Made by a program: the position numbers and the translations under genes
Source of the DNA: Mycobacterium sp.
GTDB lineage: Bacteria > Actinomycetota > Actinomycetes > Mycobacteriales > Mycobacteriaceae
Length of the DNA: 64,000 nucleotides
Direction of reading: 5' to 3'
NCBI GenBank assembly: GCA_003987775.1
Contig: RXJD01000009.1
Span: 1-64,000 of the forward strand
Shown: one piece after another, positions 24,949-61,199 of the stretch
Layout: each line of letters opens with the position of its first letter
How positions within the stretch are numbered: position 1 is the first letter of the stretch
Notes under the pieces: model-generated
Told to the model about the DNA's origin: nothing
Database searches by the model: none
What the model saw: the letters and a program-made list of their open reading frames with translations, nothing else

Positions 24949-24962
24949 GTACTTTCCGGTAC
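24949..24962. promoter_or_regulatory. GTAC palindrome upstream of haloalkane dehalogenase
   Basis: TGTAC-TTTCCG-GTACA, 73 bases before the dehalogenase ATG. It is the first of nine perfect GTAC-N6-GTAC sites in the window, all intergenic. Confidence 0.6.
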
Positions 24963-25034
24963 AGTCTGTGGTAGGCGAAGCTGGGACGTCGAGGCCGGTC
25001 GATCCGCGACGCGATGGTGAAAGGATGTTTGTCC

Positions 25035-25934
25035 ATGCGTGTCCTGCGAACGCCGAATTCTCGTTTCGAGGGGCTGCCGGATTACGAGTTTGCACCTCAC
25101 TACGTTGCGGTCGACCGCGGCGACGGCGTGGCGTTGAGAATGCACTACCTCGACGAGGGTCCGCGGCGCGCTCCGGCCATCTTGTTGTTGCACGGCGAAC
25201 CATCATGGTCATATTTATACCGACACATGATTCCGGTGTTGGTCGACGCAGGATTGCGGGCGGTGGCGCTGGACCTCGTGGGATTTGGCCGCAGTGACAA
25301 GCCCGCGATGCGTTCGGACTACACGTACCTGGCGCACGTCAATTGGGTTAAAGAAGCCCTCGACACAATCGGCTTGGACGAAATCACGTTAGTAGGCCAA
25401 GACTGGGGTGGATTGATCGGCCTGCGAATCGTCGGCGAGGAGCCCGAGCGTTTTAGCCGTGTGGTTGCCGCAAACACGTTTCTACCGACGGGGGAACAAC
25501 GGGGCAAGGCCTTTCTGGCATGGCAGCGCTACAGTCAAGAAACACCGTCTTTCGATGCAGGCAGGATCGTCAACGGCGGCTGTACGACGAATCTGACTCC
25601 CGACGTCATTGCAGCATACGACGCGCCGTTTCCCGGTGACTCCTTTAAGGCTGGGGCGCGCCAATTTCCGATGCTGGTTCCCACCTCGCCCGACGATCCC
25701 GCCGCGCCGGCCAATCTCGCGGCGATGGCGGCGCTTGGCCGCTTCACGCGGCCTTTCCTGTGCGCATTCTCTGACCAGGATCCCATCACTCGGGGAGCTG
25801 ACGCGGTCCTTCGCGAGCACATTCCGGGCGCGAAAAATATTGCTCCGGTCACTATCTCCGGGGCCGGGCACTTCCTCCAAGAAGATCGCGGACCCCAACT
25901 AGCCCAAGTCATTGCCGAATTCGTCCACGATTGA
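25035..25934 (+). CDS. Haloalkane dehalogenase
   Basis: This 299-residue alpha/beta-hydrolase has the dehalogenase signature HGEPSWSYLYR (53-63), with E55 where most hydrolases differ. The nucleophile is D123 in LVGQDWGG, with halide-binding W124. D249 (SDQDPI) is the probable acid and H279 (GAGHFLQED) the base. It would hydrolyse carbon-halogen bonds to alcohol and halide in the cytoplasm. The N-terminus MRVLRTPNSRFEGLPDYEFA resembles mycobacterial DmbB-type enzymes, which supports ATG 25035 over an upstream in-frame GTG/ATG at 25014. A GTAC palindrome lies 73 bases before the start. Natural substrates are unknown for this group. Confidence 0.9.
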   Translation: MRVLRTPNSRFEGLPDYEFAPHYVAVDRGDGVALRMHYLDEGPRRAPAILLLHGEPSWSYLYRHMIPVLVDAGLRAVALDLVGFGRSDKPAMRSDYTYLAHVNWVKEALDTIGLDEITLVGQDWGGLIGLRIVGEEPERFSRVVAANTFLPTGEQRGKAFLAWQRYSQETPSFDAGRIVNGGCTTNLTPDVIAAYDAPFPGDSFKAGARQFPMLVPTSPDDPAAPANLAAMAALGRFTRPFLCAFSDQDPITRGADAVLREHIPGAKNIAPVTISGAGHFLQEDRGPQLAQVIAEFVHD

Positions 25935-26265
25935 CAAGCGTTATGCGAGCCGGTGGACATACTTCTCTCAACGCGGTCGGACATTCATGGATACTCAGGT
26001 CGATTGGCACTGCCTGTGCTACCGCACTCACCCGTTGCTTTTCCTGGGCGCTCAGCGCGCGATAAACGTTGTGGCACTGACGTTTTGGTCTGATGGTTGG
26101 TTTAGGAGGAACCGTCAGATCGCGGTTCAGGCGGAGTTTAGACAGTGGCCAGAACCGTAGTAAAGAACCTGGATGGCGCGTGCATGCTGCGCGAAACCGG
26201 CTGGTCCGGTTTGTTGCTGAGGAGGGTACCTGCTCATTTGGACACCGCACAGAGGTGGGGGCAGC
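25935..26265. other. Intergenic, no recognised gene
   Basis: No gene or repeat is recognised. The region lies between the dehalogenase stop and the cyclase GTG. GAGGTGGGGG at the end can serve as ribosome-binding site for the cyclase. Confidence 0.4.
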
Positions 26266-28128: not shown

Positions 28129-28164
28129 CCGCGAGAAGAACACCGCAAAGCCAGCGCGTGCAAA

Positions 28165-29170: not shown

Positions 29171-29977
29171 TCAGCGAGTGACGTTAAGCCTTTGCGCCGC
29201 AAAGTCGGCGGCTTGGTTCGTCATCCCGTTGACGGGGTAAGCACGGTGGGCGGCGCGATCGGTGCCTGTTGGCGAACACACTGGGTCTGCGGGGGCACAC
29301 AAGTCAATGGTCTTAGCTGCAAATAGGTTACCGATCGTCAGGGGCGGCGCGCCGCCGTCTATTAGCTGCACAAACGAGTCCCGTGGTTTGCCGAATAGTG
29401 CTACCACGGCGACGTGCTGCGCGACTCCTGACGGTAGGGGTCCGGCGAGCCCGTCCGGAAGCACGTAACCTGCTGGGACAGCATCCGTTGTGGTGTAGAC
29501 CGCTACGGCGGCGCCTTGCGAGTATCCACCCATCACAATCCTGGTGGCGGGACAGTCTGACGCCAGGGTGACGACTTCATGGCTTGCATCAACAACCCCT
29601 TCGGCAACACGCCAAAAATCCAGTGATGCAGGGTAATCGACAGCATAGGGTTCCACTGTCAAGCCACCAAGGCGCGTCCTGAGGGCGTCGAGAAATGCCT
29701 CCCCTGTAACACCTATCCCCGGTGGCTCGAAGGTGCCGCGCGCGAACACGAGAGCGACATTAGGACACTGTGCAGCCTGGGCCTCGGGAAGAGGCTGCAG
29801 AAGCAGCCCGAGCCCTACCACTGCTGTCAGCAGGGCTGGCCATCGGAGTCCGCATCCAGTAGTCCATCGCAGGCACAACGACCGCTTGGGGTTCGACTCC
29901 GCAGTCCTGAGGATCCCGACTTGCTCTCCTACAGGACAGTGTCGCACGCAGTTGGGGTCGACGCTGCATTGATGCAT
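29171..29977 (-). CDS. Secreted cutinase-family esterase
   Basis: This 268-residue precursor has a Leu-rich secretion signal around residues 40-67 (LRWPALLTAVVGLGLLLQPL, ending AQAAQ). The cutinase fold follows: CPNVALVFARGTFEPPGIGV, the nucleophile elbow GYSQGAAVAV near residue 150, and DLCAPADPVCSPTGTDRAAH with the catalytic Asp and His near the end. Mycobacterial cutinases hydrolyse lipid esters outside the cell. The ATG at 29977 has a strong RBS (AAAGGAG, 5 nt spacing), although it gives an unusually long pre-signal stretch. The GTAC palindrome at 30039 lies 62 bases upstream, between this gene and the divergent flavodoxin-like gene. Confidence 0.88.
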   Translation of the reverse strand: MHQCSVDPNCVRHCPVGEQVGILRTAESNPKRSLCLRWTTGCGLRWPALLTAVVGLGLLLQPLPEAQAAQCPNVALVFARGTFEPPGIGVTGEAFLDALRTRLGGLTVEPYAVDYPASLDFWRVAEGVVDASHEVVTLASDCPATRIVMGGYSQGAAVAVYTTTDAVPAGYVLPDGLAGPLPSGVAQHVAVVALFGKPRDSFVQLIDGGAPPLTIGNLFAAKTIDLCAPADPVCSPTGTDRAAHRAYPVNGMTNQAADFAAQRLNVTR

Positions 29978-30038
29978 CGGAGCTCCTTTCGGTCCATGCG
30001 CAAGACCCGCTGGCCGTTGATCGTCGCGAACTAGTACT

Positions 30039-30052
30039 GTACCGATCGGTAC
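30039..30052. promoter_or_regulatory. GTAC palindrome between cutinase and flavodoxin-like genes
   Basis: TGTAC-CGATCG-GTAC, a fully symmetric 14-bp palindrome. It sits 62 bases before the cutinase ATG (minus) and 190 before the plus-strand flavodoxin-like gene. Confidence 0.6.
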
Positions 30053-30241
30053 TTCGAGCATGAATCCGCCCCGGTGCACGGCCCTACTCGCCGACTACGT
30101 AGCAGCCTCCGATCGTGGGACTGCGCAATCAGTGGGTCACGGTTTCCTACATGACAGTTGGGTATTCCCTGAGCGTGCCGCTTCGCGACCGATGACGAAA
30201 CCGTTTCGGGTTGGCCTTGGCGGACGATAGAGAGGAGCTCG

Positions 30242-30907: not shown

Positions 30908-30912
30908 CACAT

Positions 30913-31551
30913 TCAGTCGGGAAAACGGACTAGCCCCCGTCTGATTGCGATCCGCATCGCTTCCGTACGTGTCGATGCCCCCAACTTCGCAAACAGGTTG
31001 TTGGCGTGCAACTTAACGGTGCTCTCGGCAATGAATAAGGCGCCGGCAATCTCCCGATTGGTTTTTCCTTCCGCCATCAACCTGAGCACGTCGAGTTCGC
31101 GGGCCGTGGGCTGCGCACGCTGAAGCCGCTCGGCCAGCTTGGTGGCCACCGCGGGCGAAACGCACATCTGACCTGCGGCCGCCCTTCGAATGCCCTGCAC
31201 CAACTCGATTTCTGCGACATCCTTTAGCAGAAAGCCTTTGGCCCCGGCTTGCAGAGCGAGTTGAATGTCGGCTTCGGCATCGAACGTCGTGAGGATCACC
31301 ACGCGCGCGTCTGCATCAATTTCGCGGATCCGGCTAACACACTCCACCCCGTCAACGCCAGGCATCCGCAGATCAATGAGAGCAACGTCGGGACGCCGGG
31401 CCGCATACATTTCGACCGCCTCGTGCCCATTAGCTGCTTCGGCGACCACTTCCATGTCAGCTTGGCGATTGACCATAAAAGCTACGCCAGCTCTAACCAC
31501 CTCGTGGTCGTCAGCCAACAACACCGCAATCCGAGCCGCGCTATTACTCAT
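30913..31551 (-). CDS. NarL/LuxR-type response regulator
   Basis: This 212-residue two-component regulator has a receiver domain with the acidic pair in LLADDHEVVRAG and phospho-acceptor D60 in ALIDLRMPG. A LuxR-type helix-turn-helix lies at about 145-205 (ARELDVLRLMAEGKTNREIA, STVKLHANNLFAKLGA). It is divergent from the multi-GAF kinase gene (31787), its most likely partner. An almost perfect GTAC palindrome (31621, GTAC-CATCAA-GTTC) lies between them. Confidence 0.93.
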   Translation of the reverse strand: MSNSAARIAVLLADDHEVVRAGVAFMVNRQADMEVVAEAANGHEAVEMYAARRPDVALIDLRMPGVDGVECVSRIREIDADARVVILTTFDAEADIQLALQAGAKGFLLKDVAEIELVQGIRRAAAGQMCVSPAVATKLAERLQRAQPTARELDVLRLMAEGKTNREIAGALFIAESTVKLHANNLFAKLGASTRTEAMRIAIRRGLVRFPD

Positions 31552-31786
31552 GTTCCGGTCTACCGCAACCTAGCGACGGTGTGCTCGTCCCCCACCCGAC
31601 ATCGTCCACTCCCTCGGACTGTACCATCAAGTTCACTAAAGCTCCCCTGCCGGGCCCGACTTGTCTACCCGTTGGTGCTACCCGAGACAATTTGGGGTCT
31701 GCCTCACCTTTAGTTCTAGGCGCAGGCGCAACCAACGACCAGACTTGGTCCAAGACCAGCAGCGTTTTCGTGCCACCGCACATACC

Positions 31787-34700
31787 ATGTCGGTGGTGAG
31801 ACAGACCGCCTTCGAGGGAACTACTCGCGGCACGACCGAATGCCCCACGCGCAGCCAAGCGTCCGACTTGTCTGCGGCAAGACTTCGTCAAGCAAAGATG
31901 CGGTCAGCGATCGGCGATGCCGTTACGGTCCTGACCGAGGCTGACGCGACAGAAGAGGCGTTGCAGAACGCCCTGGCAGCAATCGCTGACGCGGGCGAAT
32001 TTTCCTCAGCCTGCGTCATCGAACTCAATGACCAAGGTGGGGCAGCACGACCGCGTCCGCAACTCCTAGCCGGATGGGGTGCCCGGGACCGAACACCTCT
32101 CGGTAACTCGTTGGCGTTACTCGACATGCGTCCATGGATCGACGCATCGATCCACAGTGACCACCCTCTGGATGCGTTGATCGGCGATCTACCCGACAAA
32201 ACACTTCGCGGTGTGCTGAAGGAAGCGAAAGTGGCATACGTGGTTTGTTGCCCCATCCAAGTCAACGAAAACTATTGGGGGTGGGTACGATTCGACGATA
32301 CTACTTCTCGTCGCTGCGACGCGTCGGAAAGGCAGATTCTCCAGTCGGCGGCGATCATCATGGCTCGCGTCGCACGACGTGGTCAGTTACGGCGCAATTC
32401 TCGGGATCAGGCGACCGACGCCGAGGGCGCCGGCCATTCCGCCGAGCCGGCGCCTAATGACGCGTCACTCAATGCCCTGCTCTTTCGACTCTCTAGTGGC
32501 TCCGATCTCGATACACTTTCGGATGCGTTGTCAGTCGAGGTGACCTCACGGCTACACGCGGACGGCAGTCAGCTTGTGCTGTACGACGAGGCCAAGGACG
32601 AGCTGTTTACCGTCGCGGGCGTGGCCAAGAATGAACCCGAGCGATTCCAATTTCCGGCAACAATTCAGGCCAGCGGCGCGGGATGCTTCGAGGTGCTCCG
32701 CGATCGTCGCACGCCCCGTTACTTCGACCTTGACCGCGAGCCCCAGAACTTCTGGCCGGGAACAGTCGAGTATCACCGTCGCTTCGGCTCGCAGACGGTG
32801 TTGGTGACACCTCTCCATTACGGCGACCGCTTTGCCGGGTTTCTTGGCGTTGCATTTCTTCGGCGTCGCGAACTCACGCAAGACGAACTTGATCTGCTGC
32901 AGTCTCTTGGCCACCAAGCCGCATTGGCAGTGCAGCTCATCCGGGCGGGCAAGCACGAGCGTGAGCTGGCGGTGACGCGCGAACGTGAGGCCGCGACGCA
33001 GGCGCGGGCGGCAGAACTGGAAGTTGCCAACGTCGCCTTGCAGCGTCTGGTTGACGCGACAGCTAGCCTCGACGGCCTTGAAGGTTTCATCTCGAAGGCC
33101 TTGCGCATTGTCGCCGAGGCCCTTAATGCGTCCGGTGCGGGTTACTTCGAGCACCCTGCCGATACCATCTTTCTGCGCTTCTGGCTCGACCACGGCGTCG
33201 TCTACGGGCCGGATGAGCTACCCAGCCTCAACGGCGACGACTTGACCACTGTTCGTGAGATGGCGTCCGGGTTCACCGTGTCGCCTGCGCACCTAGGCGT
33301 TGACTACCGACGGCGCAGTTCGCCCAGTGTCGTGCACCATACCAAGGCGACCGCGTCGCCAGCACTACACAACTTCTGCCGCAGCCGCGGGTGGGCGTGG
33401 GAACTTAACGTGCCGTTGATGGTTAACGGCGTTAGTTGCGCTGCAATCACGTTGCACCGCGATGAGCAGCAGCCCTTCAGCACCGGGGAGGTTGCCCTGG
33501 GGGAAACGCTCGGCAAGCAAGTCGCACTCGCCATCCAAGTCAACCGTCTGGCCGAGCGTGATCGCGAGGCCGCTATCGCGGCCGAGCAGGCCGCCGAATT
33601 GGCCCGCGCCAATGCGGTCTTGAGTCGATCGTTAAGTCACGCCACTGTGGAGGAAACGACCGACGTGCTCATGGCCCGCATGGTCAAAGAGATCGGTGAC
33701 ATTGCTGGGGCACAATGCAGCGCCCTGATGCTGGAAGAGCCCGACAGGGGCCTCACCATGCCGCTGCTTTTCCTCGACGGCGAGCCGGTGGACCCTCAGA
33801 GCGATCGGGCTCACCCCATGTGCCGGCAGACGTGCCAGTGGTCTGACTTTCCGTCCGGCGTCGCACTGTCGGATGACCAATTGGTAGCCGAAGAACTCGA
33901 CGCGCTGGCGCCGCGGCTCTGGCCGCCGAGCAACGCCTGGCATTACGCCCAGGGCCACCAGGCGCTGGCCATGGTGCCGCTTCGCCACGGTGACCGAACG
34001 ATCGGCATTCTCGGCCTCGGTTTCGTGCACAGCCCAGTGTTTGACAGGCGGACCAGTGCGTTGCTGCGCGCGCTGGCCAATCAGCTCGGTTTGGTGGCAG
34101 CGCTCGAACAGGCCGCGGCGAAGGCGCGAGAGGCCGTGGTACTGCGGGAGAGAGAAAGCGCCGCCCGCCAGCGAGCTGATACCTTGGCCCAGGCCAATGC
34201 CGCGTTGACCCGCTCAACCGCCCAGCTCGCGTCCGGCGAGGGCTTATCCGACTTTCTGACCGCCGTGCTGATGGAGGCGATCAACGCTGCCGGCGCCGTG
34301 AGCGGAGCGGTGTTTATCCATGACGCCGCAAAGCAGACGCTGAGTGCTGAAGCGTTCATTATGCGTGGTGCAGTTGTCAACGTCGCTACCGATCCTTTGG
34401 GCGCTGCGTTCCGCGCTCCCCGGTCGACAGCGGATGATCCGGCCTGGGGCGCAATGGCCGTCGACAAGAAGGTGTTGTGGATGGACTACGACAACCCTTC
34501 GCCAATCGATTGGCCGGAGGCGCTGCAATTTCATCGCGCGTTGGGCCACCGGTACGTCGCTGACGTGCCGATGATCTATCGCGGCACCGCTATCGGGTTC
34601 CTCGGGTTGTGTTTCGACAAATCGGCTGAATTATCTCTCGATGAAAACACACTCGAGGTAGCGCAGGTCCTAGCTCAACAAGCCGTGCTCGCGGTGCGCC

Positions 34701-35347
34701 TGACCCGATTGGCCGAAGACGCCCGCACCGCCGCTCTCGACGTCGAACGTGGCCGGGTGGCCGGCGAGATTCACGACGGACTCGCGCAGGGATTCACGGC
34801 AATATTGATGCAGGCCCGCGCAGCACTGCTTTCTGACGAGGACTCGCACCGCCACCTTTTCCTCCGCAGGATCGAAGCGCTGGCAGCCGACGGGGTCAGC
34901 GAAGCGCGTCGCTCCGTCTTCGCACTGCGCTCGGTGACGTTAGAGGCTGACGGGCTGATCGCCGCATTGACACGCTTAGTCGACAACTGCGCTATCACCG
35001 GTCAAATCGACTGCCAGTTGCAGTCCCACGGTCCCCTTCTGCATCTGACACCCGCGCTGGAAGATTCCGCTTATCGGATCGTGCAAGAATCGCTGCAGAA
35101 TGCCCTCAAATATGCTGACGCGCGCACCATCGTCGTCCACGTCGGCGCTACCCAGGGTCAACTCACCGTCACTGTCGACGATGATGGCACCGGGATTGCC
35201 GAGGACATCATTTCGCAGGCCAGGGAACGAGGAGGCTTGCGTGCAATGCGCGAGCGAGCAGCGACTGGCGGCGGCGTTCTCACCGTGACGCGGGTGCAGC
35301 CGCACGGAACGCGAGTTTCGGTTAGTTACCCGCTGCCGCCGCCATGA
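31787..35347 (+). CDS. Multi-GAF NarL-type sensor histidine kinase
   Basis: This 1186-residue soluble kinase has a series of GAF-like domains separated by coiled segments (ERELAVTREREAATQARAAE; AAEQAAELARANAVL; RERESAARQRADTLAQANAA). I count five: about 30-190, 225-395, 420-600, 630-800 and 830-970. They are followed by a HisKA_3 dimerisation helix with the phospho-accepting His near 995 in VAGEIHDGLAQGFTAILMQ, and an HATPase domain (ESLQNALKYADARTIVVH, VDDDGTGIAEDI). No transmembrane helix is seen, so it senses an internal signal. The ATG at 31787 is chosen because upstream codons show no family similarity. The stop overlaps the next gene by ATGA. Confidence 0.88.
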   Translation: MSVVRQTAFEGTTRGTTECPTRSQASDLSAARLRQAKMRSAIGDAVTVLTEADATEEALQNALAAIADAGEFSSACVIELNDQGGAARPRPQLLAGWGARDRTPLGNSLALLDMRPWIDASIHSDHPLDALIGDLPDKTLRGVLKEAKVAYVVCCPIQVNENYWGWVRFDDTTSRRCDASERQILQSAAIIMARVARRGQLRRNSRDQATDAEGAGHSAEPAPNDASLNALLFRLSSGSDLDTLSDALSVEVTSRLHADGSQLVLYDEAKDELFTVAGVAKNEPERFQFPATIQASGAGCFEVLRDRRTPRYFDLDREPQNFWPGTVEYHRRFGSQTVLVTPLHYGDRFAGFLGVAFLRRRELTQDELDLLQSLGHQAALAVQLIRAGKHERELAVTREREAATQARAAELEVANVALQRLVDATASLDGLEGFISKALRIVAEALNASGAGYFEHPADTIFLRFWLDHGVVYGPDELPSLNGDDLTTVREMASGFTVSPAHLGVDYRRRSSPSVVHHTKATASPALHNFCRSRGWAWELNVPLMVNGVSCAAITLHRDEQQPFSTGEVALGETLGKQVALAIQVNRLAERDREAAIAAEQAAELARANAVLSRSLSHATVEETTDVLMARMVKEIGDIAGAQCSALMLEEPDRGLTMPLLFLDGEPVDPQSDRAHPMCRQTCQWSDFPSGVALSDDQLVAEELDALAPRLWPPSNAWHYAQGHQALAMVPLRHGDRTIGILGLGFVHSPVFDRRTSALLRALANQLGLVAALEQAAAKAREAVVLRERESAARQRADTLAQANAALTRSTAQLASGEGLSDFLTAVLMEAINAAGAVSGAVFIHDAAKQTLSAEAFIMRGAVVNVATDPLGAAFRAPRSTADDPAWGAMAVDKKVLWMDYDNPSPIDWPEALQFHRALGHRYVADVPMIYRGTAIGFLGLCFDKSAELSLDENTLEVAQVLAQQAVLAVRLTRLAEDARTAALDVERGRVAGEIHDGLAQGFTAILMQARAALLSDEDSHRHLFLRRIEALAADGVSEARRSVFALRSVTLEADGLIAALTRLVDNCAITGQIDCQLQSHGPLLHLTPALEDSAYRIVQESLQNALKYADARTIVVHVGATQGQLTVTVDDDGTGIAEDIISQARERGGLRAMRERAATGGGVLTVTRVQPHGTRVSVSYPLPPP

Positions 35348-35829: not shown

Positions 35830-35995
35830 ACCAGGGTTAGAGCGGTTTAGAGCCCGTATCGCAGAATCACGCCGCCGCAAGAACCCGTGACATGTCGGCC
35901 CTGTTGATCGGAGCCTGGTGAGTGAGCATGCGACCTTCCTCCCAGAGAGTGATTGAAAACGTCGGGTCTGCTGCACGATCAGGTGACAGTTTCGG

Positions 35996-37212: not shown

Positions 37213-37439
37213 CTATTCGTGCAGCAGACCCGTCCGCGGTGTAGTGAGCTGGGAAGTCCCTCAGCGTTAGGCATCTGCGACGAAGTGATCTGCGCGCCTG
37301 GCCTCATCGACGCGTGGCTTGTTTCGAGAGCCTATCGCTGTGTCCTAGCGGTTGCCTGGATGTCGAAGTCGATTGCCTGTTTCGCGCTCAGAGACCTCCC
37401 AGCGTGTGGTCGCGGCTCGCCGGTTCAGCGATCGCCCCA

Positions 37440-38510: not shown

Positions 38511-38581
38511 GAGCAGAATGGTACGTCTTGTTGCCGCGAGCTGGTAGATGCTCGATCGCGTTCGCGCGTCAACCGGTGACT

Positions 38582-38595
38582 GTACCTTTCGGTAC
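38582..38595. promoter_or_regulatory. GTAC palindrome between nitroreductase and azoreductase
   Basis: CTGTAC-CTTTCG-GTACT, placed between two divergent reductase genes (starts 38510 minus and 38673 plus), where one site could serve both. Confidence 0.62.
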
Positions 38596-38672
38596 TTTTC
38601 TGGTATGCCTACTTTGCAGAGTGTTGGTGGCTGCCGTGCAGCATCCTGGACACCCGAAACGGAGTTGAACTC

Positions 38673-41245: not shown

Positions 41246-41288
41246 GTCGCCCGTATCCTTTCAAGCTCGGCACGGTCATAGTTGTACT

Positions 41289-41302
41289 GTACGCTTTGGT
41301 AC
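41289..41302. promoter_or_regulatory. GTAC palindrome upstream of the SDR gene
   Basis: CTGTAC-GCTTTG-GTACAC, 44 bases before the SDR GTG on the minus strand. Confidence 0.62.
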
Positions 41303-41768
41303 ACTGCGAGGCGCAGTCGGTGGGCTTCCCACATGGACGTGACAGCCGACACATCGTGACGAAGACGATCATTGCGAGATAGGGAATTCAATCCGGACCT
41401 GCGATGGCAGCCCGAATGAGACAGGTCTACGCTCACTGCAATTCACGCCTTCCTTCAGTCGGAGTCGCTGTTGCACAACGAATCCCGCGGATCAGAATTG
41501 TTCTGCTTGGTCGACCCGGGCTGTGACGGGGCAATTAACCCGATCAACCCGGAGGTGTAATGCTCTGATGACCCGTCCCTTGAGTGCCGATGCTCATCGG
41601 AGCCGCCCCACAACCGCGGTGAGGTCGGGCGTGGTAGTGGCGACGCAGCAGTGCACTGGACCGCATCTTGCGGAGGGCGGACGCAAGAAACGCCAACAAA
41701 TCAGTGCGCGAGAAAGTTTCACGGCGCATCGTCGGTCGATTTGCTCGTGTTCGGGTGGCACATTAAGT
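41303..41768. other. Intergenic between two GTAC sites
   Basis: No gene is recognised. The stretch separates the site serving the SDR gene (minus) from the site preceding the acetyltransferase (plus). Confidence 0.35.
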
Positions 41769-42906: not shown

Positions 42907-43304
42907 GATAATTGCCGTCGGCTCGGCCTGCTCAGCCCGGTCGAGGTCGGACAGCCAACCGCATTCGATGAGCTCTTGTTTCGCGTAGTGCTAAATGGTC
43001 CGATCGCTACGGCCCATATCGGCAGGGCTCTCGGCGCCGGGGCGCCCGGCGGCACACCAGAGGCTGACCCCAAGCAGAACGGACTTTGGACAACCCGGCA
43101 CATCATCCGAAAGCGGCCCGTTGACGCGATCGTGGCGACACATGCCACCGCCGAATTGGGGCTTTACAACATCGCTGGTGAAGTTCGTAAGCCGCCTGCA
43201 GGTACCTGATCGTCAGACTCATGTAGCGCCGACTCGATCGGACTAATGCGCGACCACCTTTTTGCCGAGCACTGGCGAGCCGGATTTCACCAGCCGGCCT
43301 AAAT
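42907..43304. other. Intergenic, no recognised gene
   Basis: The frame of the IS3 remnant stays open to about 42989 (HYAKQELIECGWLSDLDRAE) but I do not recognise that part. Nothing else is evident before the GTAC site at 43305. Confidence 0.3.
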
Positions 43305-43318
43305 GTACCTACCAGTAC
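43305..43318. promoter_or_regulatory. GTAC palindrome upstream of the antiporter gene
   Basis: TGTAC-CTACCA-GTACA, 138 bases before the antiporter GTG. Confidence 0.58.
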
Positions 43319-43442
43319 AATGTGTCTCGCGGTCGAAGATGTTGTTGTGGTAGTCAAAATTTTGCATCAGTCGTGAATACCGAGGCTGGTATTCACCCCT
43401 TGACGGCGGAAGCTCCGCTGCCCTAGGCCATAGGTAGGGTCT

Positions 43443-48868: not shown

Positions 48869-49457
48869 CGATACGTCACCCTTTCCCCGACTGGCTCTCG
48901 AGCGGGACCGAGGCGTCGGCGTCATTGAGCCTGCTGAGATGTTCGTCGAGCCAGCGGTCCACACGGCAGCAGGACTGCCGGTGCGGATCCGAAAGCCACA
49001 CCGTACGCGGGTTTGGCCGGCACTCCGCGCGTTCAGCCGACCGAAGCACGTTCGAGCATGCCGGGCGGTTCATCGGCACCGTTCCGATCCATCCGTCCGC
49101 CGTAGCCCTTTGACATGCCCGACTGCAGAAACTGGTCGCATGTGGATGCTCGCGTTGCTTGTTGCATGGCCGACGCGGCGATCTGCCATGGCGACCGACC
49201 GCGCGGCGAGAGCTGTCACAGCCTACCTTTCGATCTCAAGCCGACGATCCTGCATCGGGCTGCGGGGTCGGGCCAATGACACACGGTATATCTCTGTGGT
49301 GCGCGCGAAGTTCGGACGTTCCACCGATACGCTACGGTAGCTTAGACTGATCAGTACAGTGCGGCAACGCGCTGCCCGCGTTGGCTCGCGTGATGGCCTC
49401 GCCATCTCGACGGGCATGCGCTAGGTTGACGGACCCGTGAGTTTGAGGAGACCTCTG
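48869..49457. other. Intergenic with a degenerate GTAC-type palindrome
   Basis: No gene is recognised. At 49344-49357 the sequence AGAC-TGATCA-GTACA matches half of the GTAC palindrome, with ACTGATCAGT symmetric at its centre, about 100 bases before the decarboxylase gene. Confidence 0.35.
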
Positions 49458-51050
49458 ATGCCGACGGTGCGCCAGCGGACCTACGACATGCTGCGAGCCC
49501 ACGGAGTGACGACATTCTTCGGAAATCCTGGGTTCACCGAGTTGCCTTTTCTCACCGACTTTCCGGCGGATTTCACCTACTACCTAGGTCTGCAAGAAGC
49601 GGCCGTCGTAAGTATGGCTGACGGCTATGCGGGTGTGACGGGTATGCCGGTGGTTGTGAATCTGCACAATGCACCAGGTGTGGGCAACGCGATGGGCAAT
49701 CTCAAGACAGCGTTTCACAACAAGACGCCGCTGATCATCACCTGTGGTCAGCAGCGCCGTGATATGTGCCTTTACGAGCCGGGCTTTTACAACCGGGACG
49801 CCCGCGACCTGCCTAAGCCGTATGTGAAGTGGTCCTACGAACCTCAACGCGCGCAGGACATTCCCGCCGCCTTCCAGCGCGCGATCCACATCGCCTGTCA
49901 AGAGCCGCAGGGGCCTGTCTTTCTGGTGCTGCCGGTAGATGATTGGGAGCGCGAAGCAGACCCGTTGCCACTCGTCATTCGTCGGGTCTCTACCCGCGTT
50001 GCGCCTGACCCGCAGGCATTGGCGTCAGCCGCAGGGCGTATCGCGGCCGCCAGAAACCCCTGTTTGATCGCTGGGGCCGCGATTGACCGAGCGGGAGCGT
50101 GGGATGAGATGGTCGCGCTTGCCGAAAAGTTGCGTGCCGCCGTGTACGGCGCGCCGGCCGCGAGTCGTGCGGCTTTTCCCGAGAACCATCGACTCTTTCG
50201 CGGTGCTTTGGTGTTTGACCGGGAACTGCTCCGTCATTGGCTTGAGGATCACGACTTGCTAGTCGTGGTCGGCGCAGCGGTTTTCGACTTCGACATGGGA
50301 GGCATGGGTCCGGTCCTGCCCGAAGATAGCGACTTATTGCTGTTCACCGATGATCCCGAAGAGGCCGCCCGCGCGCCCGCAGGCGACGCTGTGCTGGGCA
50401 ACGTCAAGTTAGCGCTTACGACCCTGGCCCAGGCGGTGCCGGAAACGACTGCCACCTGGCCGCAGACAACACCCAACATGCCAACCCCGGCTACGGGGGA
50501 TCCGATACAACCGCACGCCTTATTCGCTCTACTGGAAGAACTTCGACCAAAAGATGGTGCCGTGGTGTTGGAGGCGTCTTCTCACGCCTCGGCAATGCAC
50601 ATGCGAATGCCGATCACCGTGCCACAAGGTTTCTTCTACGCCGGCGTGGGCGGTATCGGCAATGGCTTGCCCACCGCGGTAGGGGTGCAACTTGCGCAAC
50701 CTGACCGCCGCGTCATTTGCGCAACCGGTGACGGAGCGATGCTCTACACGTTGCAGGCTTTATGGACGGCAGCCCAACATCAGGCGCGCATAGTCGTGGT
50801 AGTCCTCGACAACGCAGGTTACGCCGTTCTCAAGGAATCCGGCGATTACCTCGGCGTTGGTCATGACCAGCCGGGATTGGACACACCCGGCGTAGACCTG
50901 GTCAAGCTGGCCGAAGGATTCGGCGTACCCGGCATCCGGGTGGAACAGTACGCGGGGCTGCGCTCCGCGTTCGAGCAAGCCCTTGCCGCTGACGGGCCAA
51001 TGCTGTTGAGCGTCAGGGTCGATCCGACCCTGCGACCGCTTCTGTCGTGA
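49458..51050 (+). CDS. Thiamine-diphosphate enzyme, benzoylformate decarboxylase-like
   Basis: This 530-residue ThDP enzyme starts MPTVRQRTYDMLRAHGVTTF, FGNPGFTELP. The conserved Glu lies in LGLQEAAVVSMADGYA, and the diphosphate/Mg site runs from ICATGDGAMLYTLQ to VVLDNAGYAVLKE. Layout and length match benzoylformate decarboxylase (converting phenylglyoxylate to benzaldehyde and CO2), but 2-oxoacid decarboxylases of other specificity are close. The ATG at 49458 has GAGGAG 7-8 nt upstream; the GTG at 49437 is disfavoured. It stands alone on the plus strand. Confidence 0.85.
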   Translation: MPTVRQRTYDMLRAHGVTTFFGNPGFTELPFLTDFPADFTYYLGLQEAAVVSMADGYAGVTGMPVVVNLHNAPGVGNAMGNLKTAFHNKTPLIITCGQQRRDMCLYEPGFYNRDARDLPKPYVKWSYEPQRAQDIPAAFQRAIHIACQEPQGPVFLVLPVDDWEREADPLPLVIRRVSTRVAPDPQALASAAGRIAAARNPCLIAGAAIDRAGAWDEMVALAEKLRAAVYGAPAASRAAFPENHRLFRGALVFDRELLRHWLEDHDLLVVVGAAVFDFDMGGMGPVLPEDSDLLLFTDDPEEAARAPAGDAVLGNVKLALTTLAQAVPETTATWPQTTPNMPTPATGDPIQPHALFALLEELRPKDGAVVLEASSHASAMHMRMPITVPQGFFYAGVGGIGNGLPTAVGVQLAQPDRRVICATGDGAMLYTLQALWTAAQHQARIVVVVLDNAGYAVLKESGDYLGVGHDQPGLDTPGVDLVKLAEGFGVPGIRVEQYAGLRSAFEQALAADGPMLLSVRVDPTLRPLLS

Positions 51051-52708: not shown

Positions 52709-53220
52709 CGTGAGTAACGAAGTGTCACATAGTTTGTCGGCGCGGCCGCTAACCATCTCGGAGGCCGAGTCGCGACAACGTGTCCGCTCTGCTGCGCAGC
52801 AGCGGCGTGTTCCTTTGCTACAGAGGGCAATATGTTCCTTTCGATGGAGACGATCGACGGCAAGCAGAGACTAGACTCAACAGTACAACTCGTTGTTGCT
52901 GTTGCCATCCTCCCGAGGCCGGAACTTTGCATTACTGATTGCTGCTGCCCAGCGTTGCAGGCAGCCGAGCACCGTTACGCTTCCGTGCTCGAAATACCCG
53001 CAGTGCTATTCAGGCGCCGACTCGACGCGGCGACCAAAGCCTTCCACTTTCGACCCGACGCAGATGGCTGCATGACTACGTGGTCGGCGGCGACAGCGGA
53101 GCCTCGCCCCTGCCCTCGTCGAGCGGGAAGAGTTAACCCCGCGAACCGCCTTTAGGCGTCCCCGGCGTGACCCGAAAGCAGGAGCGGGCCAGTTGCGCGA
53201 GCTTGCGGGACCTGGAATAG
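52709..53220. other. Intergenic with a degenerate GTAC-type site
   Basis: No gene is recognised in these 512 bases. The half-conserved palindrome at 52873 (AGAC-TCAACA-GTAC) resembles the one at 49344. The other open frames here are short and composition-driven. Confidence 0.3.
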
Positions 53221-56346: not shown

Positions 56347-56622
56347 CTAGTCGTGACTATGTCGGCGAAACTCGTCCATCAGCGCGTCGAAGTTGGTGGG
56401 ACGGATCTCGATCGACTCCTGCCGCGCCGCTCGCGTAATCCATATCGTCCGTCGAATTTGGTCTACGTACACTCTGCACGCTTCGCACAGGCTCGTGTGC
56501 TGCTCGAAGCGAGCCAAGTCTGTTGCCACTAGGGCCGTTTCGAGATAATCAGTGACCAACGCGACGGCGTCCGCGCAGGCAATGCGCAAGTCGTTAGCGA
56601 TGAAGGCGTCGTCAGCGCTCAT
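56347..56622 (-). CDS. Anti-sigma factor with zinc-binding zf-HC2 motif
   Basis: This 91-residue protein has the HxxxCxxC motif (H42, C46, C49 in FEQHTSLCEACRVYV) of zinc-binding anti-sigma factors. Such proteins hold a partner ECF sigma until an oxidant or other signal releases it. No transmembrane segment follows, so it is cytosolic. Its ATG overlaps the sigma gene stop by 11 nt, confirming it as the partner. Confidence 0.82.
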   Translation of the reverse strand: MSADDAFIANDLRIACADAVALVTDYLETALVATDLARFEQHTSLCEACRVYVDQIRRTIWITRAARQESIEIRPTNFDALMDEFRRHSHD

Positions 56623-57286
56623 CGAGGTACACCTCCAGCAAGTTGCGTAGTACGGCGCGGCCTCTGTGCAACAACACACGTTGGTTCGCCGCTGATATGC
56701 CGAGCGCCTCGCATGTCTCCTCGCTCGACCAGCCCTCGATGTCACGCATCGACACCACCTCACGTTGAGCACTCGGCAGCCTGCGCAGCCCATCAAGTAC
56801 CACCGCACGAACCTCCGCCGACATCAGCCGCTGCTCGGGTAAAAGGTCCCACCGGCCAGGCACATCACGCCAGTAGTGTGCTCCGAGTTCAGGATGGGCC
56901 ATTCGATCCGGATCAACCGACGGCCGCACGTCGGTTTCGGGCCCGGCCGTCGCGTACGGCACCGTATTGAACTGACCCCGCGCGAGGCTGCGCACACGGT
57001 TGAGGACGACGCGCACGATCCACGTGCGGAGGCTCGCGCGACCTTCGAACTTACCGATGGACCGCACCACCGAGAGCCATGCATCTTGCACTGCGTCCTC
57101 GGCCATCGCTGCGTGAACATAGACGCTGGCCATCCGCACCAACGGAGCGTGCAGGGTTTCGACAAGGGCGCTAAATGCTTGTGCATCGCCGGCTTTCAGC
57201 GCCGTAATCAGATCGGCCTCGGTTTTCCACCGATCGTCAGGAACCGTCCGCGTTTCGACCACCACCTCGGTATCGAACTCCTTCAT
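56612..57286 (-). CDS. ECF-family RNA polymerase sigma factor
   Basis: This 224-residue ECF sigma has region 2 at about 38-100 (VYVHAAMAEDAVQDAWLSVV, RASLRTWIVRVVLNRVRSL) and region 4 at about 165-215 (GLRRLPSAQREVVSMRDIEG, WSSEETCEALGISAANQRV). It directs RNA polymerase to stress promoters. It is followed by its zinc anti-sigma and is divergent from an AhpD-type gene it may control; TGTAAC and CGTC elements lie in the 100-base gap. The signal is not known but redox is likely given the neighbours. Confidence 0.9.
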   Translation of the reverse strand: MKEFDTEVVVETRTVPDDRWKTEADLITALKAGDAQAFSALVETLHAPLVRMASVYVHAAMAEDAVQDAWLSVVRSIGKFEGRASLRTWIVRVVLNRVRSLARGQFNTVPYATAGPETDVRPSVDPDRMAHPELGAHYWRDVPGRWDLLPEQRLMSAEVRAVVLDGLRRLPSAQREVVSMRDIEGWSSEETCEALGISAANQRVLLHRGRAVLRNLLEVYLDER

Positions 57287-57924: not shown

Positions 57925-57928
57925 TCGT

Positions 57929-57979: not shown

Positions 57980-58000
57980 TTGTGGGTCAGGACCAGCACT

Positions 58001-58014
58001 GTACCATTACGTAC
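58001..58014. promoter_or_regulatory. GTAC palindrome upstream of DUF427 gene
   Basis: CTGTAC-CATTAC-GTACAG, with symmetry over the outer 6 bases on both sides, 215 bases before the DUF427 ATG. Confidence 0.6.
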
Positions 58015-58215
58015 AGAAAGAAGAGCCGACGCGAAGTGAGGCCCGTTATCTCGTCTGAAAACAGCCTCGCTTGAGTGGCCGCGATGCACCCCGAAGCATT
58101 CAAACGCTAGGTGGTCCAACGAATATTTCATCGGCGGGTTCGGTCTCGAGTACCGAGGTTCTGCGCCATGCCATCAACGCGTCACGACCATTCCCAGCCA
58201 GCCGAAGGAGCTGTG

Positions 58216-58992
58216 ATGATTCCAGAATCCACTAATCCGCACCGGGACTACCCTCAGATGGCGGCCGACCGTGGGCGCATCGAACCGGTCCCACGCCGGG
58301 TTCGTGGCTACTTCAACGGGATCCTGGTATTCGACACGAAGGCGGCCCACTACGTCTGGGAGGTGGCGTATTACCCGCAGTACTACGTGCCTATCGAGGA
58401 CGTCGACACGTTGTGCCTGGTCGACGAGCAGCACACCCAGAAACTCCAGCTAGGGTCCTCGCGGCTGTTCTCGCTGGCAGACGGCAACCGCACGGTTAAG
58501 TCTGCTGCGCGCCTTTACGATACCGGTCCGCTCGCGGGGAGTTTCCGCTTCGACTGGGACGCGCTCGACTGGTTCGAGGAGGACCAACCGCTCATCGGCC
58601 ACCCGCGCAGCCCGTATGTCCGGGTGGATGCGCTACGCTCGCACCGTCACGTCAGAATCGAACTCGACGATGTCCTACTGGCGGAAACCGAGTGTCCTGT
58701 ACTACTTTTCGAGACGGGTTTACCTACTCGCTACTATATTGACCGCACCGACATCGACTTCTCGCATCTGAAGCCCAGTCCAACACAGACCATTTGTCCG
58801 TATAAGGGGATCACCTCAGGCTATTGGTCGGTGGAGATCGGAGAGCGTCTTCACCCGGATCTGGCCTGGACATATCGGCATCCTACGATCTCCGTCGTGG
58901 AAATCGCCGGGATGGTCGCGTTCTACAACGAGAAGCTAGACATCTACGTCGACCAAGCGCTGCTGTCGCGACCCAGCACACACTTTGGGTGA
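58216..58992 (+). CDS. Tandem DUF427-domain protein
   Basis: This 258-residue protein has two DUF427-like repeats. The second is clear: HRHVRIELDDVLLAETECPV, LLFETGLPTRYYIDRTDIDF, then CPYKGITSGYWSVEIG and MVAFYNEKLDIYVDQ. The first (YFNGILVFDTKAAHYVWEV, YYPQYYVPIEDVDT) is a diverged copy. Function is unknown; the fold may bind small ligands. ATG 58216 has GAAGGAG 6 nt upstream, which excludes the longer start. Confidence 0.82.
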   Translation: MIPESTNPHRDYPQMAADRGRIEPVPRRVRGYFNGILVFDTKAAHYVWEVAYYPQYYVPIEDVDTLCLVDEQHTQKLQLGSSRLFSLADGNRTVKSAARLYDTGPLAGSFRFDWDALDWFEEDQPLIGHPRSPYVRVDALRSHRHVRIELDDVLLAETECPVLLFETGLPTRYYIDRTDIDFSHLKPSPTQTICPYKGITSGYWSVEIGERLHPDLAWTYRHPTISVVEIAGMVAFYNEKLDIYVDQALLSRPSTHFG

Positions 58993-59144: not shown

Positions 59145-59726
59145 TCATTGCGGATTGTCGGTTCGCCGGCCGTCGGCACTTACCGGCACCCGAACATCGT
59201 CGCCCTCAACGTTCTCGCCGGCGACCGGCTTGGTCAGCGCTACCCGCACTACGAAACAGATTGCGCTCACGAGGTAGAACCCGGCAGTCAGCAACAACCA
59301 ACGCGAGAAGTACGGCGCCTGAGTCAGCCCTGTCGCCATCTGATATGTCGACGCCCCTTGTTCGATGATGCCAGGCAGGAAGAGCAAGAGGATCAACCCG
59401 CTTGCCACGGTGGGTAAGCGGATGTAATTGACGATCAAAATATCGCGTACCGAGCGATGACGAACGGCCCCATTCGGTAATGATCTCGCAGGGATCAGGC
59501 GTTCCGCCATCGCGTAAAGCGGAAACAGGACCAAGTCATGAGCGATGATGGCGACAGCGAACCAGACAGCGATCGACTGCCACCAAACTCTCCGGTTGAA
59601 AAGTTCTTCGAGGCCGAGGATTGATACTGCGTAACCCCCAAGTGCCAGCGCGGAGAGCAACACGATGAGGTGCAGCAATCGCTCACCGTACAGTCGTCGT
59701 CCCACACCTAGCAGGTAACGCATCAT
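59145..59726 (-). CDS. Membrane protein of unknown function, coupled to the molybdopterin oxidoreductase
   Basis: This 193-residue protein has about four transmembrane segments (LLHLIVLLSALALGGYAVSI; SIAVWFAVAIIAHDLVLFPL; LIYLLLFL-like in SGLILLLFLPGII; LLTAGFYLVSAICFVV). I do not recognise a family. ATG 59726 overlaps the stop of the molybdopterin gene (ATGA), so the two are probably one functional unit, perhaps a quinone- or heme-linked partner. Confidence 0.7.
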   Translation of the reverse strand: MMRYLLGVGRRLYGERLLHLIVLLSALALGGYAVSILGLEELFNRRVWWQSIAVWFAVAIIAHDLVLFPLYAMAERLIPARSLPNGAVRHRSVRDILIVNYIRLPTVASGLILLLFLPGIIEQGASTYQMATGLTQAPYFSRWLLLTAGFYLVSAICFVVRVALTKPVAGENVEGDDVRVPVSADGRRTDNPQ

Positions 59727-61135
59727 GTCGTCCGGAAGTCGATAGAAGACACCCACTTGGTGCAATGCACACCAGGAAGAGCCGGAACAATGATTCGTGC
59801 CGGATAACCGTGGTCAAGCGAAAGGTCGGCGCCGTTGACTTGGAACGCCAGAAGCGATCGCGGGTCCACGATTTGATTACTTTGCAGCACAGCGTGATTG
59901 AAGCTTCCGAAACGTTCCAGCGATGACACGAGTGCAGAACCAGGCCGTGGAAGTCCGACCGCCGCCGCGAGGTCGCCGAGCCGGATCCCCGTCCATTCCT
60001 GCGTTGTCGACCACCCTTCGACACAAGCGATCGGCAGTTTCACCGTGTGGTGCGGCATCGCCGCCAGCTGCGTGCGATCCAGTGCTATATCGCCAACGCC
60101 GACGAGTCGCAGATGCCAGTCTGCTCCGGTAAACCTCGAATCGATCCCTGCGGCAACTGCGGTGCGGTTGATCTGGAAATCAGTTGGGCCCGTGCCGTAG
60201 CTACGTCCTCGTGGCAGCAGCACCGCCGCGCGACGCATGACTCCCCCGATAGTCTGGCCCGCGCTCAGCACTCCGACAAGCGCGCTCCCACCGGCGACGA
60301 CGGCCAGCATGCCGCGGCGACTCAGAGTCGCCGGATCGGGATTTCGCGCCACCAGTCCGTCCTCATCGGACGGTTCCGGGACCGTGTCAATTCTCGAGGT
60401 TGCCAGGACGCTTCGCATCGATCGTGAGCGTAGACCGGTCATCATTTTGCTGAACTTGATGCTGACATGGGCAACGAAACCGGCGATGAAGACCCAAGCC
60501 CCGAAGTAGTGGGCGGTGTAGAAGCTGAAACCGAAGATGTAGTCGTACTGGATGTTCAACACGCCGGTGACGATCTCGAACAGTATTCCGCCCACCAGCA
60601 TCAGCAGCGAGACGCGCTCGAGGATGGCGGCGATTGATCGCGCCGGAGGCCAGCTGAAAAGGCGTGGGATCACAGACCATAACTTGGCGAGAACTACGGG
60701 AATGATGATCAGCCCCAGTCCGACGTGCAGGCCCTGTGTCAGGCGGTACAGCCAGCTCGGCCTGGTGGGCCAGTCGAAGGTAGGCAGCTTGAGTAGGCCC
60801 ACGTCGAACGGGATGGCCTGGCCAAATTGGGGGCCATAAGCAATGTATGACAGCAGACCGGTCAAGATGACGACAGGCAATACGACCAACAGAATGAGTC
60901 CGAACACCGATGTCAGCCACGGACCCCGTAGTGGACTGCGCCACCTGATCAGCAAAAGACCCGGCGGAGGACGCTTTTCCAGTGCCCGCCATAACGCCGC
61001 GGGAAAGCCATATCCCTCGACGTGTTCGCCAGTTGGCGCCGATGAAGGAGCGCCATTCTCGGCGCGGCCAGTTGGAGAAGCGGTCGAATCGCCTTCGGGC
61101 GGTGTAGAGGTCGTCACGTCGGACTCGAGCCTCAT
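59723..61135 (-). CDS. Membrane-fused sulfite-oxidase/YedY-type molybdopterin oxidoreductase
   Basis: The N-terminal half (about 50-230) has four or more transmembrane helices in a cytochrome b561-like arrangement with several His (LTQGLHVGLGLIIIPVVLAK; FSFYTAHYFGAWVFIAGFVA). The C-terminal half (about 300-470) is a sulfite-oxidase-fold domain with the Mo-ligand Cys near residue 370 in LPIACVEGWSTTQEWTG, and DHGYPARIIVP near the end. It would reduce or oxidise an S- or N-oxide outside or inside the membrane with electrons through the b-type domain. The start is uncertain: TTG 61177, ATG 61135 or GTG 61117. The ATG is chosen since the GTAC palindrome at 61186 abuts the TTG. Confidence 0.82.
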   Translation of the reverse strand: MRLESDVTTSTPPEGDSTASPTGRAENGAPSSAPTGEHVEGYGFPAALWRALEKRPPPGLLLIRWRSPLRGPWLTSVFGLILLVVLPVVILTGLLSYIAYGPQFGQAIPFDVGLLKLPTFDWPTRPSWLYRLTQGLHVGLGLIIIPVVLAKLWSVIPRLFSWPPARSIAAILERVSLLMLVGGILFEIVTGVLNIQYDYIFGFSFYTAHYFGAWVFIAGFVAHVSIKFSKMMTGLRSRSMRSVLATSRIDTVPEPSDEDGLVARNPDPATLSRRGMLAVVAGGSALVGVLSAGQTIGGVMRRAAVLLPRGRSYGTGPTDFQINRTAVAAGIDSRFTGADWHLRLVGVGDIALDRTQLAAMPHHTVKLPIACVEGWSTTQEWTGIRLGDLAAAVGLPRPGSALVSSLERFGSFNHAVLQSNQIVDPRSLLAFQVNGADLSLDHGYPARIIVPALPGVHCTKWVSSIDFRTT

Positions 61136-61185
61136 CTCGTGTTGGGCAGTAGTCGGCGACCGTTCTGACTGCGTCAAGCAGAAGT

Positions 61186-61199
61186 GTACCGTGCAGTAC
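61186..61199. promoter_or_regulatory. GTAC palindrome upstream of the molybdopterin oxidoreductase
   Basis: TGTAC-CGTGCA-GTAC, 51 bases before the oxidoreductase ATG and 192 before the divergent DUF417 gene. It may serve either or both. Confidence 0.6.

What the first reader, a model, noticed from the sequence alone, without database searches (positions are those of the whole stretch)
24949..61199. Nine copies of the palindrome TGTAC-N6-GTAC form a dispersed regulon of detoxification and redox genes
Perfect GTAC-N6-GTAC sites occur at 24949, 30039, 38582, 41289, 41769, 43305, 44894, 58001 and 61186. I checked every GTAC I could find in the window for a partner 10 bases on and found no perfect pair inside a gene. 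All nine have T before the first half-site, and eight have A or T after the second. They precede a haloalkane dehalogenase, cutinase/flavodoxin-like pair, nitroreductase/azoreductase pair, SDR, acetyltransferase, CPA2 antiporter, DM13-DoxX pair, DUF427 protein and molybdopterin oxidoreductase. A rough chance estimate at about 62% GC is under one site in 64 kb. Imperfect copies lie at 29052, 31621, 49344 and 52873. The pattern suggests one dimeric regulator, probably TetR-like, coordinating xenobiotic or redox defence. The regulator is not identified.
Basis: partly seen in the sequence, partly recalled or inferred. Interest (0 to 1): 0.88.

Follow-up and report, generated by a model that had tools for sequence, protein, structure and literature searches.

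The report
A portable redox-defence regulon
The repeated short palindrome is a real switch site, very probably bound by one repressor protein encoded just outside the window, which appears to control a mobile set of detoxification and redox genes shared among mycobacteria and some relatives.

Summary
Confirmed: nine GTAC-N6-GTAC sites against 0.24 expected. They are clustered: TGTAC-N6-GTACA occurs nine times in the 7.29 Mb genome, six in this window. Motif-rich loci share one TetR family (16 of 19 loci). The resident copy lies 17.8 kb beyond the window (contig 24:81809-82465); nothing in the window matches it well. In 16 of 16 held-out genomes the best TetR hit has a site with at most one mismatch within 1.5 kb. 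A residue opening the recognition helix covaries with the operator: Gly with TGTAC, Ser-Lys with TGGAC. An invariant Cys aligns with Cys106 of E. coli NemR. Recurrent targets are redox genes. Best reading: an oxidant- or electrophile-released TetR repressor of a mobile redox island, found also on two plasmids. The binder rests on comparative genomics only; repression and signal are inferred; nothing was tested at the bench.

The parts
24948..24963 (.). operator TGTACTTTCCGGTACA upstream of haloalkane dehalogenase
   Evidence: perfect 16-mer; matrix 29.7, top of window; same 16-mer in the M. numidiamassiliense locus L152
29051..29066 (.). imperfect operator
   Evidence: 1 mismatch; matrix 11.7
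30038..30053 (.). operator between cutinase (-) and flavodoxin-like gene (+)
   Evidence: 1 mismatch in outer base; matrix 14.2
31620..31635 (.). operator between response regulator (-) and GAF histidine kinase (+)
   Evidence: 1 mismatch; matrix 17.4
38581..38596 (.). operator between F420H2 quinone reductase (-) and Flavodoxin_2 reductase (+)
   Evidence: 1 mismatch in outer base; matrix 17.2
41288..41303 (.). operator upstream of SDR (-)
   Evidence: perfect; matrix 18.6; related SDR beside a site in L098
41768..41783 (.). operator upstream of GNAT acetyltransferase (+)
   Evidence: perfect; matrix 27.6
43304..43319 (.). operator upstream of CPA2-type antiporter (+)
   Evidence: perfect; matrix 28.1; sites before homologues in L099 and L108
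44893..44908 (.). operator upstream of DM13 lipoprotein (+)
   Evidence: perfect; matrix 25.6; sites before a homologue in L110
49343..49358 (.). hybrid operator TAGACTGATCAGTACA upstream of the gene 49437-51050
   Evidence: 2 mismatches; matrix 7.8, rank 13
52872..52887 (.). hybrid operator TAGACTCAACAGTACA upstream of GNAT (-)
   Evidence: 2 mismatches; matrix 9.7, rank 12
58000..58015 (.). operator upstream of DUF427 protein (+)
   Evidence: perfect; matrix 21.0
61185..61200 (.). operator between molybdopterin oxidoreductase (-) and DUF417 protein (+)
   Evidence: 1 mismatch in outer base; matrix 14.9; DUF417 and molybdopterin oxidoreductase genes are next to sites in other genomes
25014..25934 (+). 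haloalkane dehalogenase
   Evidence: NF002043 455.8 bits, cut-off 265
29171..29974 (-). cutinase
   Evidence: PF01083
30242..30907 (+). FMN_red/flavodoxin-like protein
   Evidence: PF03358
30913..31551 (-). NarL/LuxR-type response regulator, candidate target
   Evidence: PF00072, PF00196
31661..35347 (+). multi-GAF histidine kinase, candidate target
   Evidence: PF13185, PF07730, PF02518
37974..38510 (-). F420H2-dependent quinone reductase
   Evidence: PF04075
38673..39308 (+). azoreductase/quinone-reductase-like flavoprotein
   Evidence: PF02525
40289..41245 (-). short-chain dehydrogenase
   Evidence: PF00106
42001..42462 (+). GNAT acetyltransferase
   Evidence: PF00583
43443..44672 (+). CPA2-type antiporter
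   Evidence: PF00999
44952..45389 (+). DM13 electron-transfer lipoprotein
   Evidence: PF10517
47489..48964 (-). mycothione reductase, island gene without a site of its own
   Evidence: TIGR03452 773.6 bits, cut-off 635.65
56612..57286 (-). ECF sigma factor with zf-HC2 protein at 56347-56808; no site of its own; its family is in 10 of 19 loci compared, this window included
58111..58992 (+). DUF427 protein
   Evidence: PF04248
59723..61177 (-). molybdopterin oxidoreductase with a long N-terminal part
   Evidence: PF00174 at residues 351-483
61376..61903 (+). DUF417 protein, distant relative of RclC
   Evidence: PF04224; NF040476 70.8 bits, below cut-off 275

Best explanation
The palindrome is the operator of a TetR-family repressor with a TetR_C_13 (NemR/LmrA-like) sensor domain, encoded in this genome at contig 24:81809-82465, 17.8 kb past the window end. 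A dimer binds the site, in full AnTGTACY-N4-RGTACAnT, and holds about a dozen redox and detoxification promoters down. Oxidation or alkylation of its invariant Cys119 releases it and turns on reductases, a haloalkane dehalogenase, DM13, DUF417 and molybdopterin proteins. A second ECF sigma gene, at about contig 24:68259, has its own site 100 bp upstream and is probably switched too. The set is a mobile island; related sets ride on at least two plasmids. Shown by sequence: site statistics, TetR-site association, helix-operator covariation, the conserved Cys, the gene content. Inferred: binding itself, repression rather than activation, the signal. I put the TetR as the binder at about 0.9; the figure below is for the whole statement. 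(Odds mended: an earlier 0.85 was for the binder alone and overlapped with the third rival.)
For: 9 sites against 0.24 expected, clustered. A matrix from other genomes ranks the 13 sites first with a gap. One TetR family is in 16 of 19 loci compared. Of 248 genus genomes, 28 (own included) have a hit of at least 235 bits, a cut set afterwards at the gap to the next hit of 221; they average 3.9 perfect sites against 1.0 in 220 others (p 4e-9). Without the 14 genomes of the discovery set, 16 average 1.6 against 0.96 in 218 (p 0.003). In all 16 the best TetR hit has a site with at most one mismatch within 1.5 kb, 11 perfect and 5 with one mismatch; the two weaker TetR loci fetched alongside have none. 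G169, the only genome with five or more sites and no strong hit, carries a 2.49 kb deletion that leaves about 85 residues of the TetR. Among 79 loci found from the TetR, 35 have a perfect site, and GTAC pairs number 82 at spacing 6 against 1-14 at ten other spacings; some of these loci are from discovery genomes. TetR genes are the commonest neighbours of sites, 13 of 99 entries. 38 of 38 Gly proteins have a site with at most one mismatch nearby, 36 of 37 Ser proteins do not. On pMK12478 all four sites (three perfect, one with one mismatch) lie just upstream of annotated genes. Cys119 aligns with NemR Cys106; NemR is Foldseek rank 4 for the model.
Against: No experiment. Genome-wide the loose motif is not enriched over its reversed control. 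The resident TetR's own upstream site is poor: 2 mismatches, about 130 bp upstream. NemR Lys175, partner of Cys106 in the published bleach switch, is Arg, Gln, Asp or Ser in nine aligned proteins. Gene-side TACAnT, -10-like, is not commoner than on the far side (29 of 45 against 25 of 45, p 0.52) and no TTG -35 element stood out, so promoter overlap is unproven. Many loci are near-copies of one block, 99.96-99.98% identical over 12.6-19 kb, so counts are not independent. G163 and G232 have four sites each and no strong hit; I did not look into them. Held-out motif counts differ modestly. The window's own ECF sigma and mycothione reductase genes have no site. Only 12 of 29 GTACN6GTAC sites in the genome score above 14 (nine here, 68160, 72463, and 163472, which I set aside), so the regulon is small.
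Confidence: 0.6

Rival explanations
1. The two-component system in the window (response regulator 30913-31551, GAF kinase 31661-35347) binds the motif, DosR-like, and regulates itself through the site at 31620.
For: A site lies between its two divergent genes. LuxR-type domains often bind palindromes (general knowledge).
Against: Its best match in 247 other genus genomes is 48% identical, yet the motif recurs in many of them. Its family appears in 3 of 19 loci compared, the TetR family in 16.
Confidence: 0.04
2. An ECF sigma factor of the island recognises the sequence as a promoter element.
For: An ECF sigma family recurs in 10 of 19 motif loci and in both plasmid modules.
Against: The motif is a symmetric palindrome and the 45 single-gene sites show no strongly conserved further element downstream. 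The helix-operator covariation concerns the TetR, and sites beside Actinomycetospora and Subtercola TetRs were found from the TetR alone.
Confidence: 0.04
3. The same TetR binds, but it acts as an activator, or its ligand is an organic xenobiotic such as a haloalkane or aldehyde rather than an oxidant or thiol-reactive electrophile.
For: Haloalkane dehalogenases, cutinases and a P450 are among the genes at sites. The Cys is family-wide, also in proteins with another operator, so it may be structural.
Against: Peroxiredoxin-like, molybdopterin oxidoreductase and DUF417 genes recur at sites. The Cys is in 38 of 38 Gly-type proteins and is the only Cys of the matched part in 20 of them.
Confidence: 0.3

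Closest known systems
E. coli NemR (TetR; nemRA-gloA)
   Same: Homologous over about 180 residues, Cys106 equivalent conserved. Similar predicted fold, Foldseek rank 4. A 16-bp palindrome of the same architecture, TAGACCGACTGGTCTA, upstream of nemR; that this is the NemR box is recalled.
   Different: Half-site TGTACY not TAGACC. Lys175 absent. Many operons, some with ECF sigma genes, rather than one operon. Actinobacterial and partly plasmid-borne.
RcrR of uropathogenic E. coli (TetR controlling the DUF417 gene rcrB; PMC9600549, passages seen)
   Same: A TetR repressor whose targets include a DUF417 membrane protein, answering hypochlorite in print.
   Different: Different sensing cysteines (Cys54, Cys95 in the paper). 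One operon. Sequences not compared here.
LmrA/YxaF of Bacillus
   Same: Same C-terminal Pfam family, TetR_C_13_2; the YxaF structure is a profile hit.
   Different: Targets (flavonoid and efflux genes, recalled) differ. Operator not compared here.
VnfA of Azotobacter vinelandii
   Same: Its suggested site is literally GTAC-N6-GTAC (PMC7294313, one passage seen).
   Different: An activator of nitrogenase genes in a proteobacterium; the shared string looks coincidental (inference).

Membership tests
TetR-family regulator | TetR_N helix-turn-helix domain | tested here: met
   PF00440 43.6 bits, cut-off 24
TetR-family regulator | all-helical C-terminal sensor domain | tested here: met
   PF16925 and PF21993 above cut-off; ten helices in a model of mean pLDDT 89.4
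NemR | Cys at the position of Cys106 | tested here: met
   profile alignment; invariant in 27 sequences. A MAFFT alignment placed it a few columns off
NemR | Lys at the position of Lys175 | tested here: not met
   Arg, Gln, Asp or Ser in nine proteins aligned
NemR | operator with TAGACC half-sites | tested here: not met
   TGTACY half-sites; the 68 training sites were selected for TGTAC, the Y (134 of 136) was not; two window sites have one TAGACT half
NemR | released by hypochlorite or electrophiles | not testable with these tools
   needs protein
Named NCBIfam TetR equivalogs (ScbR-binding, AcuR and others) | score above curated cut-off | tested here: not met
   best 67.6 bits against cut-off 150
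Rcl-type reactive chlorine system | RclC equivalog | tested here: not met
   NF040476 70.8 bits, cut-off 275
RcrR | Cys54 and Cys95 of RcrR | not tested
   RcrR sequence not fetched
DosR/NarL-type regulon | regulator conserved where the motif recurs | tested here: not met
   best relative 48% identical in 247 other genomes

The most novel reading that the evidence does not exclude
A portable regulon with a one-residue address code. The residue that opens the recognition helix of this TetR family (Gly57 here) sets the third base of the half-site: Gly reads TGTAC, Ser before Lys reads TGGAC. Redox operons on different plasmids and islands carry the matching address and so plug into whichever TetR of that type is resident. 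Gly with TGTAC seems to have arisen more than once: proteins from Subtercola (perfect site) and Lentzea (two one-mismatch sites) sit among Ser proteins. With the helix masked, none of 200 bootstrap trees makes Gly one clade and p-AU is 0.028; but forcing only Lentzea or only Subtercola in with the rest is not rejected (0.11, 0.21). Against the code: 16 Ser proteins without the Lys have TGGAC in only 1 of 16.
Probability: 0.35. Interest if true: 0.72.

Novelty: new member of a known kind. Interest (0 to 1): 0.6.

Why it matters
It gives a regulator and an operator to a redox-defence island whose relatives travel on mycobacterial plasmids, among them pMK12478 of M. kansasii and pMAC109a of M. 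avium (2 of 72,556 plasmid records at E 1e-40). It offers a directly testable recognition rule for a TetR subfamily, and a Cys sensor candidate in actinobacteria. In the held open-access library the string GTAC-N6-GTAC and five spellings of the motif hit one paper, about VnfA/AnfA; nine other searches, judged from their listings, showed no title on this regulator. Subscription papers and preprints were not searched.

Tried and rejected
Response regulator at 30913 as the binder: tested across the genus and dropped. ECF sigma promoter element: no strongly conserved further element at 45 single-gene sites. Window TetRs at 54727 and about 62400: a whole-window tblastn with six family members gives no match better than E 7e-6 over 56 residues, helix-turn-helix only. 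Contig 24:163471, a perfect site with score 18: it overlaps the start of an SRPBCC-like gene followed by a different TetR, and the same string with a similar flank recurs in other mycobacterial loci (gene labels there are my reading of the translations), so I do not count it. Promoter overlap: TACAnT at 39 of 60 gene-facing entries proved symmetric (which dropped sites without a gene start at least 10 bp away). MAFFT put NemR Cys106 a few columns off; the profile alignment puts Cys on Cys, and I rely on the latter. Literature terms mixing NemR, LmrA and GGTC gave mostly unrelated papers. No match to the TetR in phage records at E 1e-20. No tRNA in the window.
Full report
OBSERVATION. The nine GTAC-N6-GTAC sites are at the stated coordinates, against 0.24 expected from dinucleotide shuffles. 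TGTAC-N6-GTACA occurs nine times in the whole 7.29 Mb genome: six in the window, two more on the same contig (68159, 163471), one on another contig; the reversed control occurs twice. The looser pattern occurs 29 times, its control 53 times, and the one-mismatch pattern 54 against 90, so there is no genome-wide enrichment, only a local cluster. The 16 loose matches on other contigs score 11.2 or less with the matrix described below and mostly lie in coding-like ORFs; the window's nine score 14.2 to 29.7 and lie upstream of genes. GC content is 0.612 in the window and 0.639 to 0.68 in 12 other stretches of the genome, consistent with an island.

OTHER GENOMES. Of 248 genus genomes a few have many sites. 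Sites there lie near homologues of the window's genes: haloalkane dehalogenase, molybdopterin oxidoreductase, DUF417, CPA2 antiporter, cutinase, SDR, DM13.

REGULATOR. I clustered automatic gene calls of 19 loci (the window, L025 and those 17). The most widespread family is a TetR, in 16 of 19; next is an ECF sigma family, in 10 of 19. The TetR has TetR_N plus TetR_C_13 and LmrA/YxaF-like domains and fits no NCBIfam equivalog at cut-off. The resident copy is at contig 24:81809-82465. A whole-window tblastn finds only weak helix-turn-helix matches.

TESTS OF THE LINK. (a) With the TetR alignment, 28 of 248 genomes have a hit of at least 235 bits, a cut I set at the gap to the next hit (221). 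They average 3.9 sites against 1.0 in 220 others; without discovery genomes, 16 average 1.6 against 0.96 in 218 (p 0.003). (b) In all 16 held-out genomes the best hit has a site with at most one mismatch within 1.5 kb (11 perfect, 5 with one mismatch); the two weaker TetR loci fetched alongside have none. At 54 such sites in 7.29 Mb about 0.03 would be expected per stretch. Several of the 16 share the same site string. (c) Of the 11 genomes with five or more sites, only G169 lacks a strong hit, and it has a 2.49 kb deletion that leaves about 85 residues of the TetR. G163 and G232, with four sites, lack one too and were not examined. (d) In 79 named loci found from the TetR, GTAC pairs number 82 at spacing 6 and 1 to 14 at each other spacing from 2 to 12. 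35 of 79 hold a perfect site: 30 of the first 32 listed (L144-L175), and 5 of the other 47. They include Rhodococcus, Actinomycetospora and Subtercola, but also discovery genomes. One block is 99.96 to 99.98% identical over 12.6 to 19 kb between several genomes and plasmid pMK12478, so independence is limited.

OPERATOR. The training sites were chosen for perfect TGTAC halves, so the rank of perfect sites is partly built in. Not built in are the pyrimidine after each half-site (134 of 136), the outer A/T, and the rank of the imperfect sites. A palindrome of the same architecture, TAGACCGACTGGTCTA, lies upstream of E. coli nemR, and two window sites have one TAGACT half.

RECOGNITION CODE. Of 79 TetR relatives, 75 had a readable recognition helix in the first tabulation: 38 with Gly before the Lys/Arg of (x)KSQLYHYF, 37 with Ser. 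Near the Gly proteins there is a perfect site in 33 cases and a one-mismatch site in 5; 36 Ser proteins have none and 1 has a one-mismatch site. In 300 bp upstream, 22 Ser-Lys proteins have TGGAC-N6-GTCCA (at most one mismatch) in 13 and TGTAC in 0; 36 Gly-Lys proteins have TGTAC in 18 and TGGAC in 2; both Gly-Arg proteins have TGTAC and one has TGGAC; 16 Ser proteins without the Lys have TGGAC in 1 and TGTAC in 0. The contrast is largely between two clades. On a tree with the helix masked, Gly needs three changes, none of 200 bootstrap trees makes it one clade, and one clade is rejected at p-AU 0.028, but not when only L190 or only L213 is forced in (0.11, 0.21). Gly57 directly precedes the recognition helix of the model.

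SENSOR. The profile alignment puts Cys119 on NemR Cys106. A review states that NemR answers hypochlorite through a bond between Cys106 and Lys175 (PMC7464077, passages). The Cys is in 38 of 38 Gly proteins and is the only Cys of the matched part in 20; it is also common in Ser proteins, so it is not specific to this regulon. Lys175 is not conserved, so any switch must differ. The model has mean pLDDT 89.4; NemR is Foldseek rank 4.

TARGETS. First genes at 75 distinct sites (13 of them in the window) give 99 automatic gene entries, some spurious. Groups: TetR 13, molybdopterin oxidoreductase 12, peroxiredoxin-like 10, haloalkane dehalogenase 6, cutinase 4, DUF417 4, CPA2 3, DM13 3, SDR 2, others; a further group of 4 entries from Rhodococcus loci I did not identify; three sites had no gene called (families checked on ten proteins). 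On pMK12478 four sites sit just upstream of annotated genes: alpha/beta hydrolase, peroxiredoxin-like, the divergent dehalogenase/SDR pair, and redoxin. pMK12478 is described as a pRAW-like plasmid (PMC10470612, passages). A TetR repressor of a DUF417 gene that answers hypochlorite is in print for uropathogenic E. coli (PMC9600549, passages). An oxidant or electrophile signal is therefore the best guess, not a result.

OPEN. Binding, direction of control and signal are untested. The resident TetR's own upstream site is weak. Promoter overlap is not shown.

Noticed in passing
window 35964-37235: IS3-family transposase pair inside the cluster; about 1.27 kb resembles IS3 copies on actinobacterial plasmids, the listed ones at 77-85% identity.
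   Followed up: partly
L029:19471 (contig 24:163471): Perfect site TGTACCAAATGGTACA at the start of an SRPBCC-like gene with its own, different TetR downstream; the same string recurs in other mycobacterial genomes.
   Followed up: partly
L108:6207-6980, L102:19023-19676, L099:3969-4766: Paralogous TetRs of the same family with a degenerate recognition helix (no KSQLYHYF), in L108 and L099 encoded next to a normal copy; possibly a partner that does not read DNA.
   Followed up: no
L107, L106, L161, L175, L233, L235: A redox module block 99.96-99.99% identical between several mycobacterial genomes and plasmid pMK12478, pointing to very recent transfer.
   Followed up: partly
L235 (G169 contig 34): A 2.49 kb deletion removes most of the TetR while three operators remain.
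   Followed up: yes
L025:4159 and L025:8462 (contig 24:68159, 72462): Two further sites beyond the window, before a second ECF sigma gene and at the start of a cytochrome P450 ORF.
   Followed up: partly
L112:8124 and 8145; L110:10176 and 10195: Pairs of operators about 20 bp apart, which might let two dimers sit side by side.
   Followed up: no
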